Assembly: GCA_017882505.1 (NCBI GenBank)
Contig: JADGPJ010000021.1
Location: 1 to 36,123 of the forward strand
Origin: Solirubrobacterales bacterium
GTDB lineage: Bacteria; Actinomycetota; Thermoleophilia; Solirubrobacterales; 70-9
Direction of reading: 5' to 3'
Length of the DNA: 36,123 bases
Under the pieces are notes generated by a model. The model made no database searches and was not told the DNA's origin. It saw only the letters and a list, made by a program, of their open reading frames with translations. Position 1 is the first letter of the stretch; each line of letters opens with the position of its first letter. Positions 311-23,782 of this stretch are shown here, one piece after another. A program made the position numbers and the translations under genes.

Positions 311-408
311 GGTCGGGTACCCCTCTCCCGGAAGCCGTCGCGCAGCTGGGTCGCTCGCATGGGCGCGGGGTGTCTGAACATGAGCTTCCGGGAGAGGGGC
401 ACCCGACC
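311..408. repeat. 98-bp palindromic element with 25-nt arms
   Basis: The arms are 311-335 and 384-408. They are reverse complements over 25 nt with a single mismatch (A at 319). They enclose 48 nt (336-383) without obvious internal pairing. The arms contain CTCTCCCGGAAGC and its complement. The size and the long near-perfect arms resemble a short non-autonomous palindromic element or the DNA for a stable RNA hairpin. No T-run follows on either strand, so it is not a standard terminator. Confidence 0.8.
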
Positions 409-21141: not shown

Positions 21142-23088
21142 CTACTCGGCGCGGATAGGAGGAGCCTTTCGCGTTTCAGCCCAAACGAAACCGAGGAATA
21201 CCAGAAGGAAGGCGGTCCCGATCTCGAGCAGCAGGGCGCCGGAGTCGTTGGCGAGGGTGCCGACCGCGGTCGCGGCGAGGGCGCCGATCAGCCCCGCCCG
21301 CATCGCCGGCACCTCTCTCAGCCAATCGCGCAGCCGATCGCGGCGCACCAGCGCGAGGCAGGCCAGGGCGACGACCACCGGGAGGAAGACGAGCAGGATC
21401 GGCCGCGCGAAACTGTGCGCCGAGAGCTGCAGCCGTCGCTGAGCGACGTTCGAGAGGTCTCCGAGGCCGCCGGCGTCGAGCACCGAGCGGGTGAGGTGGG
21501 CGTTGGCGCCGGAAACGAGGTCGATCGCGGCGAGCAGCGCCAGGACCGCGAACGGCGCCGCGATCACCAGCAGCGCCGAGCGCCGGCGCCCGGCGGCGAT
21601 CGCGGCCGCCGCGACCGCCGCCCCGACCGGGAAGACGATCGCGGCGCCGACGTCGGCGCCGAAGCGGCCGGCGGCGAAGACGAACGCGCAGAGGAGCCCC
21701 AGGGCCATAAAGACGATCGCGCAGCGCCGCGGCGAGGAGGCCGGCGCGAAGCCGGCGAGACCGGCGCCGGTCCCGGCCACGATCAGCACCGCGAGCAGCG
21801 CCTCGAGCTCGTTGCCGATCCCGTAGAAGCGAACGCCGAGGCCGGGGTTCGGTCCCAGCAGCGAAAGCGAGGTGAGCGGCGAGCCGGCGATCACGTCGAT
21901 CGCGTAGGCGAGCACGGTCAGCGCCGAGGCGAGGGCGAGGGCCCGGTAGCCGCTCAGCGCCGCCAGCGTCAGGGTCCCGAGCAGCGGAGCACCGAGCAGC
22001 ACGAGCAGCACTTCGGCGCTCTCGCCCGGTTCGATCGCTGCGCCGGCCAGCATCACGAGCGGCATGTAGATCACCGCGAGACCCGCGAGGCGGACGCCGA
22101 TCCGCGCGGCACCGCCTCGAGTGACCGCGATCGCCAGGCCCAGGAGCACGGCCCATGCCAGCAGGCTGAGGCCGATCACCGGCCCGCGGCGCGACGAGAT
22201 GACCGCCATCCGCGCCGCCAGGGATTCGATCGCGGCGGGGTCTACCGAGCCCTCCGAGCTGATCGCCTGCCCCGACATTTCCGCCGGGATTTCGGCGTTG
22301 AAGTGTTCGAGGATCGTCGGCGCCACGTCGGTCGAGAGGACGTAGCCGTCGGTGCGGGTGCTGTCCGAGGCGAGATCGCCGTCGAAGCCCTTCCCGGCGA
22401 TGCCGATTGCCAACGGATCCTCGGAGCGTCCGGTGGGGCGGGCGATGGCGATCAGCAGGTCTTCTCCACCGAGCTCGCCCACGAGGGACGACAGCTGGCG
22501 CAGGGTCGAACCGCGGACTTCGAAGGCGGAGGGAAGAGCCTGCGGGCGAGGGGCTTCTCTCAACTTCTTCGAGGAACGACTCCCGCGGCCCCCCAGACGG
22601 TGCCGCGAAAAGGTACAAGACGCTTCACCCCTCGCCCGCACGCTCACTCCAGCGGCTTCCAAAGACGAAGTCAGCAGGCCGGGGACGATGTCCGCAGGTG
22701 CGGATTCGGCGCGCTTGACCACCGAGCTCCACCAGCTCGCGCAGTTGCCATCCGGTTCCGGGAGCTCAGAGCTGTAGAGCGAGTTGAAAACCCGGTTGCC
22801 CTGGGTCATGTCGAGGTAGGTCTGCTGAGCCGAAACCGTCCCCAGCCCAGCCGAAAGCAGCCCCGGGGACAACCCATCCCGAGCAAGCTCCGCGACTCCG
22901 GTTCCCTTCGGGAGCCACACCAACGTGACCTGCGCTGGGGTCCGTGGGTGGGGTGAAGCGTCTTGTGCCTTTTCGCCGCCTGCCCCCGGCGCGGCAGCCG
23001 CCGATCCAATCTCGAAAAAGTTGGGCGAAACCCCACCCACGGACCCCAGCGCCGCGAGCGCTATGGTGACCCCGATGGCCGATCGCAC
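21142..23088 (-). CDS. Large membrane protein with extracytoplasmic phosphodiesterase-like domain
   Basis: About 648 residues. The N-terminal soluble part starts with TLVWLPKGTGVAELARDGLS and ends in a segment typical of the alkaline phosphatase/phosphodiesterase superfamily (DGYVLSTDVAPTILEHFNAE, then IPAEMSGQAI). About twelve membrane helices follow, including NPGLGVRFYGIGNELEAL. Function unknown. The start is unsure: GTG at 23088 gives a plausible signal peptide (MRSAIGVTIALAALG) but overlaps the divergent hemQ start by 14 nt and reads through palindromic element A; GTG 23040, TTG 22923 and GTG 22920 are alternatives. Codons 22644-22537 are exactly element B, a 36-residue Arg/Ser-rich insert (begins SVRARGEASC) that looks foreign to the domain. 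Confidence 0.7.
   Translation of the reverse strand: MRSAIGVTIALAALGSVGGVSPNFFEIGSAAAAPGAGGEKAQDASPHPRTPAQVTLVWLPKGTGVAELARDGLSPGLLSAGLGTVSAQQTYLDMTQGNRVFNSLYSSELPEPDGNCASWWSSVVKRAESAPADIVPGLLTSSLEAAGVSVRARGEASCTFSRHRLGGRGSRSSKKLREAPRPQALPSAFEVRGSTLRQLSSLVGELGGEDLLIAIARPTGRSEDPLAIGIAGKGFDGDLASDSTRTDGYVLSTDVAPTILEHFNAEIPAEMSGQAISSEGSVDPAAIESLAARMAVISSRRGPVIGLSLLAWAVLLGLAIAVTRGGAARIGVRLAGLAVIYMPLVMLAGAAIEPGESAEVLLVLLGAPLLGTLTLAALSGYRALALASALTVLAYAIDVIAGSPLTSLSLLGPNPGLGVRFYGIGNELEALLAVLIVAGTGAGLAGFAPASSPRRCAIVFMALGLLCAFVFAAGRFGADVGAAIVFPVGAAVAAAAIAAGRRRSALLVIAAPFAVLALLAAIDLVSGANAHLTRSVLDAGGLGDLSNVAQRRLQLSAHSFARPILLVFLPVVVALACLALVRRDRLRDWLREVPAMRAGLIGALAATAVGTLANDSGALLLEIGTAFLLVFLGFVWAETRKAPPIRAE
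22537..22644 (-). repeat. Palindromic element, copy B, in frame inside a membrane-protein gene
   Basis: 108 bp, read on the minus strand. The outer arms, 22628-22644 and 22537-22553, match as inverted repeats in 16 of 17 positions. Inside, the 26-nt 5' core (22627-22602) begins TGAAGCGTCTTGT and the 20-nt 3' core (22573-22554) begins CTCGAAGAAGTTG; both recur in copy A. A central hairpin is GCGGC (22606-22602) with GCCGC (22589-22585). The length is a multiple of three, and the element begins and ends on codon boundaries of the host gene. Confidence 0.8.
22932..23052 (+). repeat. Palindromic element, copy A, upstream of hemQ
   Basis: 121 bp on the plus strand. The outer arms, 22932-22953 and 23031-23052, are perfect 22-nt inverted repeats with no sequence resemblance to the copy B arms beyond the inner GGGG/CCCC. 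The 5' core 22954-22979 matches copy B in 24 of 26 positions and the 3' core 23011-23030 in 16 of 20. The central hairpin is GCCGC (22975-22979) with GCGGC (22991-22995): relative to copy B the middle pair is swapped from G:C to C:G, a compensated change. CTTTTCG and CGAAAAAG can form a further stem. Confidence 0.8.
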
Positions 23089-23782
23089 TTTCGCCAAGTT
23101 CAGTTTCTTCAAGCTCGATCCCGCCTGGCGCCGCCGCGACGCCGATCTCCGCGCCGCCGACAAGCAGGAGTTCCTCGCCGCCTGCGAGGACTTCGGCATC
23201 GATCGGTCGCTGCGCGCCTACTCAACCATAGGCACGCGCGGCGACGTCGACCTGGTGCTGCTCGGCCAGAGCCACAACCTCGACGACATCCACACCTTCC
23301 ACGTCGTCCTCGGCCAGAGCGGCCTGGCGAAATGGGCGGAGACGCCCTACTCGTTCCTCTCGATGACCAAACGCTCGCCCTATTCCGACGAGCAGGCGCG
23401 GCCGGAGATCTGCGTCTCCGAGCGCAAGTACCTGTTTCTCTACCCGATGATCAAGCAGCGTCGCTGGTACGGGCTGGCCCCGGAGGAGCGCGGGCGGATC
23501 ATGAAAAGCCACATCGAGGTCGGCCGTCGCTACCCCGAGATCACGATCAACACGACCTACTCCTTCGGGATCGATGACCAGGAGTTCGTCGTCTGCTTCG
23601 AGGGCGACGACCCGGGGATGTTCCTCGACCTCGTCAACGAGCTGCGACCGACCGAGTCGAGCGAGTACACGGAGCTCGAGACGCCGATCTTCACCTGCGT
23701 CGCGATGTCGGTCGGCAAGGCACTCGACGCCCTCGACGGCGTCCCCAGCGCGGTTCCGGCCAACGCCACCACTCCGGCCTGA
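23075..23782 (+). CDS. hemQ: HemQ/chlorite dismutase family heme enzyme
   Basis: 235 residues, chlorite dismutase superfamily; in Actinobacteria such proteins are HemQ, which decarboxylates coproheme to heme b in the coproporphyrin-dependent pathway. Visible: YLFLYPMIKQRRWYGLAPEE, the His-containing MKSHIEVGRRYPEI, TTYSFGIDDQEFVVCFEGDD and the closing LETPIFTC. The duplicated ferredoxin-like fold fits the length. Distinguishing HemQ from a true chlorite dismutase needs the distal Arg/Gln position, which I cannot place reliably. The ATG at 23075 has TATGGT (23062-23067) 7 nt upstream, indicating leaderless transcription; an in-frame ATG at 23063 lies inside that box. It is divergent from, and may overlap, the membrane-protein start. 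Confidence 0.82.
   Translation: MADRTFAKFSFFKLDPAWRRRDADLRAADKQEFLAACEDFGIDRSLRAYSTIGTRGDVDLVLLGQSHNLDDIHTFHVVLGQSGLAKWAETPYSFLSMTKRSPYSDEQARPEICVSERKYLFLYPMIKQRRWYGLAPEERGRIMKSHIEVGRRYPEITINTTYSFGIDDQEFVVCFEGDDPGMFLDLVNELRPTESSEYTELETPIFTCVAMSVGKALDALDGVPSAVPANATTPA

What the first reader, a model, noticed from the sequence alone, without database searches (positions are those of the whole stretch)
22537..23052. Two copies of a structured palindromic element with covarying stems
Copies at 22932-23052 (plus) and 22537-22644 (minus) share a 26-nt 5' core (24 matches) and a 20-nt 3' core (16 matches), yet their outer stems (22 and 17 nt) are unrelated in sequence and still self-complementary. 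The central hairpin's middle pair is C:G in one copy and G:C in the other. Conserved loops with freely changing but paired stems suggest selection on a folded RNA or DNA. I do not recognise the family.
Basis: seen in the sequence. Interest (0 to 1): 0.85.

Follow-up and report, generated by a model that had tools for sequence, protein, structure and literature searches.

The report
Palindromic DNA repeats behind bacterial genes
A family of roughly 110-letter hairpin-forming DNA repeats in two genera of little-known bacteria tends to sit just behind the ends of genes and keeps its two arms complementary although their sequence changes freely, apparently because one arm is recopied from the other.

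Summary
The two copies belong to a family of palindromic elements: 105 distinct copies kept from 12 genomes; in the order (Solirubrobacterales-type MAGs) 12 of 232 genomes and 2 of 54 genera have it. Each copy has arms of variable sequence, a conserved asymmetric core and a variable loop. Covariation is massive (96.4% of cells paired; 308 two-sided changes against 81.5 shuffled). It does not look like ordinary RNA evolution: arm mismatches are nearly as often A-C as G-U (32 v 48; tRNA control 0 v 16), and flanks beyond the arms are alike as inverted copies, sometimes of the neighbouring gene's end. Copies are oriented: the 3' arm ends within 12 nt of a stop codon in 47 of 93 copies outside genes, the 5' arm in 7. 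Best reading: an interspersed palindromic DNA element whose arms are kept complementary by fold-back template switching while the core is conserved. Function unproven. RAYT, integron, reverse-transcriptase and U-tract-terminator readings were tested and not supported. The window's two copies are atypical: one beside hemQ, one in frame inside a gene.

The parts
22932..23052 (+). element 1: whole palindrome, upstream of hemQ
   Evidence: 23-nt perfect inverted repeat; model hit 22935-23049, 92.6 bits
22932..22954 (+). element 1, 5' arm
22955..22976 (+). element 1, 5' core (GAA, covarying G, CGT bulge, CTTG.. stem)
   Evidence: pattern match; alignment A1
23013..23029 (+). element 1, 3' core (CGAAAAAGTTGGGCGAA)
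   Evidence: read from sequence and alignment A1
23030..23052 (+). element 1, 3' arm
22535..22646 (-). element 2: whole palindrome, in frame inside the gene 21142-22920
   Evidence: model hit, 87.0 bits; in-frame insert
22605..22626 (-). element 2, 5' core
   Evidence: pattern match
22555..22571 (-). element 2, 3' core
   Evidence: read from sequence and alignment A1
21142..22920 (-). gene holding element 2 (residues about 93-128 of the translation from 22920); true start codon uncertain
   Evidence: homologues in 42 of 50 family genomes, alignment; no Pfam match
23075..23782 (+). hemQ-like gene (chlorite dismutase family) downstream of element 1
   Evidence: PF06778, E 7.4e-49

Best explanation
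The two copies belong to a clade-specific, interspersed palindromic DNA element of about 110-150 bp. Shown: conserved asymmetric core, variable arms that stay complementary, fixed orientation behind stop codons in about half the copies outside genes, presence or absence at the same site in relatives, and an inverted copy of the adjacent flank (in the clearest cases a gene end) in about a fifth of copies. Inferred: when the DNA is single-stranded the core folds, a polymerase switches template at the hairpin and copies one arm, sometimes running on into the neighbouring gene end, onto the other side. This keeps the arms complementary while their sequence turns over and imports an inverted copy of the gene end. 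Also inferred: the core is kept by selection, as a binding site of an unknown protein or because a hairpin behind the stop codon is useful (mRNA 3'-end protection, insulation).
For: Pairing kept through change: 308 two-sided cells v 81.5 shuffled; at shared sites 192 of 250 changed arm pairs are Watson-Crick in both copies while arm identity is 0.53-0.64 and core identity 0.79-0.80. Not RNA-like: G-U 48 v A-C 32 in 99 copies, tRNA stems of the same genome 16 v 0 (Fisher p 0.001). Inverted flank copies: mean 4.66 v 1.74 in mispaired controls, 30 of 101 above their 95th percentile; starting 4 nt further out 21 of 101 score 8 or more, against 2.1% of same-genome mispairings, 2 of 101 reversed-only, 0 of 101 complement-only and 0 of 101 direct. 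Orientation 43 right-only v 3 left-only within 12 nt. Empty sites at ndk-maf in ten same-genus genomes.
Against: Template switching would also be expected to mend the core's unpaired bases, yet most copies keep them, so selection is needed in addition. G-U is somewhat above A-C (48 v 32; 99 v 58, p 0.001, in the wider count; G026 alone 18 v 2). The inverted flank copy is evident in only a minority of copies and a first, looser test did not show it. Arm copying alone does not explain the orientation bias. No partner enzyme was found.
Confidence: 0.55

Rival explanations
1. A structured RNA element: selection acts on a folded transcript, either the 3'-UTR hairpin of the abutting gene's mRNA or an RNA of the opposite strand, and compensatory mutation keeps the stems.
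For: Very strong covariation; conserved core with bulges; fixed orientation behind stop codons; retention at shared sites across genera; G-U excess in G026 (18 v 2). Template switching has itself been proposed to maintain RNA hairpins (PMC8794818, passages), so arm copying does not exclude RNA function.
Against: A-C nearly as common as G-U and per-element test 23 v 16, p 0.34; pair 24-94 is G-C 30, A-U 15 with no G-U; no Rfam family; flank copies beyond the arms.
Confidence: 0.25
2. A conventional MITE: non-autonomous transposon whose terminal inverted repeats (the arms) diverged after insertion.
For: Multi-copy, dispersed, absent from orthologous sites in relatives; G006 copies share longer flanking sequence.
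Against: Decaying ends would lose pairing, but arms stay about 91-93% Watson-Crick at shared sites while their sequence changes. No Y1 transposase in the 12 bearing genomes. Other transposase families and target duplications were not tested.
Confidence: 0.1
3. A folded single-stranded recombination site resembling integron attC, used by a site-specific recombinase.
For: Conserved short boxes in a sequence-variable hairpin set behind stop codons; GTTAAGY fits the attC box GTTRRRY (recalled).
Against: 0 of 50 family genomes have an integron integrase over the cut-off; copies are mostly single, not in cassette arrays, in the loci read; extra outer arms.
Confidence: 0.05
4. An ordinary intrinsic transcription terminator.
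For: Hairpin directly behind stop codons.
Against: No U-tract: A content in the 12 nt past the hairpin (U in the mRNA sense) 0.184 against 0.184 further out, and 0 of 62 with AAAA; a conserved core of about 40 nt is not expected of a terminator.
Confidence: 0.05

Closest known systems
Rickettsia palindromic elements (RPE)
   Same: Palindromic, about 150 bp, multi-copy, inserted in frame in protein genes (PMC10969869, passages); window element 2 is an in-frame insert
   Different: Only 12 of 105 copies lie in called genes; variable covarying arms and orientation at stop codons are my findings here and were not compared with RPE sequences
ERIC and Coxiella QMITE2
   Same: Interspersed, long imperfect palindromes; QMITE2 is mainly in 3' untranslated regions and ERIC at gene 3' ends can change mRNA levels (PMC10969869, passages)
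   Different: Those are defined by conserved sequence including terminal repeats; here the arms are free in sequence. No direct sequence comparison was made
REP/RAYT system
   Same: Hairpin repeats outside genes
   Different: Longer; no Y1 transposase in the 12 bearing genomes
Integron attC site
   Same: Short conserved boxes, structure kept with free sequence, behind stop codons (recalled)
   Different: Outer arms, no matching second box, no arrays seen, no integrase over the cut-off
Quasipalindrome template-switch mutation (E. coli, yeast)
   Same: Makes inverted repeats more perfect and extends arm identity (PMC7202029 passages; PMC3820800 abstract)
   Different: A mutation process, not an element; here it is inferred to act on a dispersed family with a conserved core

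Membership tests
MITE | conserved terminal inverted repeats | tested here: not met
   arm identity 0.53-0.64 between copies at shared sites, core about 0.8
MITE | target-site duplication | not tested
   filled and empty sites are too diverged to read; no count made
MITE | related transposase in the host | tested here: inconclusive
   only Y1_Tnp searched: 0 of 12 bearing genomes
REP/RAYT | RAYT-type Y1 transposase in the genome | tested here: not met
   PF01797 in 3 of 50 family genomes, none of them bearing
Integron attC | integron integrase | tested here: not met
   TIGR02249 over the cut-off in 0 of 50
Integron attC | both boxes RYYYAAC and GTTRRRY (recalled) | tested here: not met
   GTTAAGY present, partner reads R-CGK-CTTGTAC
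Structured RNA family | match to a described family | tested here: not met
   no Rfam match over threshold in the window; best weak match VA RNA, E 0.51
Structured RNA family | covarying stems | tested here: met
Structured RNA family | G-U tolerated well above A-C in stems | tested here: inconclusive
   48 v 32 over 99 copies against 16 v 0 in tRNA stems; G026 alone 18 v 2
Structured RNA family | transcript | not testable with these tools
   no RNA data
Intrinsic terminator | U-tract after the hairpin | tested here: not met
   0 of 62 with AAAA, A content at background
Rickettsia palindromic element type | in-frame insertion in a protein gene | tested here: met
   window element 2, same site filled in G000, G001, G019, G026, absent in G010 and G031
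RT-borne element | reverse transcriptase in bearing genomes | tested here: not met
   PF00078 in 3 of 12 bearing genomes: G008, G010, G019

The most novel reading that the evidence does not exclude
A mobile DNA element whose spread or upkeep works by fold-back copying: the hairpin core is a hinge, and an inverted copy of the host gene's end is taken as the element's own outer arm, so that each copy wears locally made arms and shows RNA-like covariation without being selected as RNA.
Probability: 0.3. Interest if true: 0.85.

Novelty: new variant of a known kind. Interest (0 to 1): 0.62.

Why it matters
Strong covariation is commonly taken as the best evidence of a conserved RNA structure. This family looks like a large natural case in which wobble statistics and inverted flank copies point to DNA-level arm copying instead, so the part played by template switching in making covarying stems can be tested on about a hundred copies. 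It also asks why a palindrome is kept in one orientation behind stop codons of ordinary housekeeping genes.

Tried and rejected
RAYT/REP: no Y1 transposase in the 12 bearing genomes. Integron attC: no integrase over the cut-off in 50 genomes. Reverse-transcriptase partner: 3 of 12 bearing genomes. Intrinsic terminator: no U-tract. Known RNA family: none over threshold in the window; one chance-level match. Viral carriage: 0 stretches in viral contigs with an exact two-part pattern of the commonest core type, which the window's own copies would not match either; phage and plasmid collections were not searched. One archaeal record (L054) is a chance match in AT-rich sequence without arms. A plus-strand RNA inferred from the G-U excess was withdrawn after the per-element test. 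A looser flank test did not discriminate and was replaced by anchored tests. The flank similarity of L113 and L108 looks like two facing promoters, not a duplication (my reading). The first tRNA control parsed badly (14 kept, 19 skipped) and was redone (31 kept; register chosen for most Watson-Crick pairs; 30 of 45 tRNA matches of G000 had loci). I first named the gene beside L066/L061/L112 isocitrate dehydrogenase and that beside L063/L032 RNase Y; Pfam shows type III glutamine synthetase for L066 and ThyX for L063.

Rows dropped: the 105 copies were picked by hand from the 162 rows, one strand per place, leaving out loci that repeat a place already held (L055, L069, L056, L047); the lowest-scoring ones (about 33-40 bits) may be only distant relatives. 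One search used 99 of 105 (at least 14 of 19 Watson-Crick), one search used 95, searches used 101 (flank long enough). One search left out same-genome pairs, six listed pairs resting only on a flanking-gene family, and pairs with the truncated copy L130; its 33 pairs are not independent.

Full report
1. Observation. The inverted repeat 22932-22954 / 23030-23052 is 23 of 23 complementary. The second copy is on the minus strand at 22535-22646 in model coordinates. The shared core occurs twice in the window and 0 times in 100 shuffles. Both strands of both copies fold well below shuffles.

2. Family. A core pattern with up to 3 mismatches matched 6 of 61 genomes, own included, 39 places in all; the same pattern read backwards gave 3 places in 61 genomes. 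A two-part exact pattern gave 39 stretches in genome contigs, 38 of them in records titled Solirubrobacterales or Thermoleophilia MAGs and one in an archaeal record that proved chance. 46 distinct copies were aligned (A1). The covariance model built from them matched 12 of 50 family genomes, 2 of 12 genera, and 12 of 232 order genomes, 2 of 54 genera. After fetching regions, a search over 94 sources gave 162 rows at E up to 0.001, from which I kept 105 distinct copies: G031 24, G001 14, G019 14, G000 11, G026 11, G006 11, G010 10, G011 4, G009 2, G003 2, G008 1, G005 1. The 46 model sequences match by construction.

3. An arm of 20 nt or more with variable sequence; an internal loop, G-R-A on the 5' side in 61 of 88 and on the 3' side in 56 of 88 copies where the anchor was found; a covarying pair 24-94 (G-C 30, A-U 15, other 1); an unpaired CGK bulge; CTTG(T)AC opposite GTTRAG; an inner stem, CTTTTT/AAAAAG in A1 and CCC/GGG in G006; an apical stretch of 32-37 nt in the 46. 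The G000 copy at the rpoC site (L124) has the internal loop fully paired, so that loop is not universal. Diverged types share the layout.

4. Covariation. With a structure that I named from the consensus, 96.4% of 1518 cells pair and 308 cells are changed on both sides (shuffled mean 81.5); sliding the partner by 1-3 columns lowers pairing to 38-58%. RNAalifold agreed, with 22 of 35 pairs changed on both sides in some sequence.

5. Position. 62 of 105 copies have a minus-strand gene on the right with its stop between -45 and +30 nt of the arm end, most of them within 8 nt. Within 12 nt: right only 43, both 4, left only 3, neither 43, after setting aside 12 copies in called genes (5 sense, 7 antisense). 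Between tandem genes the copy is antisense in 33 and sense in 10. Pfam on eight flanking genes shows ordinary functions: ferredoxin, type III glutamine synthetase, succinyl-CoA ligase, RNase J, RNA polymerase beta prime, an MFS transporter, ThyX, GreA. The window's copies are not typical: element 1 lies just upstream of hemQ (the gene caller counted it inside the over-long minus-strand ORF), element 2 is in frame inside a gene.

6. Mobility and age. At ndk-maf the element is present in G010, G019 and G026; in the ten same-genus genomes G000-G009 the two genes abut or overlap with no element; G031 has another palindrome there (22 of 48 genomes with ndk were printed). In the gene of element 2 the copy is an in-frame insert in G000, G001, G019 and G026 and absent in G010 and G031. 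By similarity of flanking genes 41 of 105 copies fall in 15 shared groups, 8 of them across the two genera; some groups may rest on paralogues. In 33 non-independent pairs at such sites core identity is 0.79-0.80, arm identity 0.53 (across genera) and 0.64 (within), and 192 of 250 changed arm pairs are Watson-Crick in both copies. Sharing could reflect descent or repeated insertion at favoured sites; ndk-maf, where G010 has it but its nearer relatives do not, is hard to explain by simple descent.

7. DNA or RNA. In the inner 19 arm pairs of 99 copies G-U occurs 48 times, A-C 32 times, other mismatches 45 times. In 372 stem pairs of 31 tRNAs of G000 the numbers are 16, 0 and 1. A wider count gave 99 v 58, p 0.001, but per element it is 23 v 16, p 0.34, and G026 alone gives 18 v 2. 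So no strand can be named as the folded one. Beyond the first arm mismatch the flanks are still alike as reverse complements: mean 4.66 v 1.74 in mispaired controls, 30 of 101 above the control's 95th and 10 above its 99th percentile. Starting 4 nt further out the mean is 4.36, against 1.46 reversed only, 1.25 complemented only, 1.74 direct and 1.62 for same-genome mispairing; 21 of 101 score 8 or more against 2.1%. A looser test did not separate real from mispaired flanks. In the clearest cases (L048, L050, L042, L115, L129, L031, L033) the left flank resembles the inverted end of the gene on the right, last codons included (my reading). This is what template switching at a hairpin would produce: in E. 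coli it makes an imperfect palindrome more perfect (PMC7202029, passages); it has been proposed to create and maintain RNA hairpins (PMC8794818, passages); in yeast such mutations depend on transcription and replication direction (PMC3820800, abstract and outline), a possible and untested source of the orientation bias.

8. Not settled. Why the asymmetric core is kept, whether a protein recognises it, whether the inverted copy arises at insertion or later, and whether the hairpin matters to the mRNA. Y1 transposase, integron integrase and reverse transcriptase do not track the family; other transposases were not searched.

9. Novelty. Searches of the held library found no paper on such elements in this group (listings, plus passages of PMC10969869). 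That library lacks most subscription journals. I file it as a new variant of a known kind, the interspersed palindromic repeat.

Noticed in passing
window 320-399; L043 3628-3727: Further palindromes (16- and 28-nt arms) with CCCCTCTCCC / GGGAGAGGGG in the arms.
   Followed up: no
L059 1022-1095; L046 6145-6210; L049 525-587: Three shorter palindromes (63-74 nt) that seem to share a loop motif near GCGGGGAG: perhaps a second small family.
   Followed up: no
L127 2978-3097; L131 6357-6476; L144 2997-3107; L146 3028-3139; L159 3057-3162: A diverged type with TTTTTCGC .. GGCGAAAA(A/T)(C/C)CCAGC cores, low model scores; may be a separate family with the same layout.
   Followed up: partly
L195 (G031, ndk-maf junction): A palindrome with another core occupies the junction that the family occupies in G010, G019 and G026.
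   Followed up: no
L100, L101, L102 (G006): Paired copies, minus then plus (one reversed), about 120-190 nt apart between convergent or neighbouring genes; two of them and L103 share a further stretch of the middle.
   Followed up: partly
L064 3166-3305: c-di-AMP riboswitch (RF00379) ahead of the gene on the left of one element.
   Followed up: no
L121, L132, L144, L129, L039: Several copies lie near contig ends, perhaps because long palindromes break assemblies; copy numbers may be underestimates.
   Followed up: no
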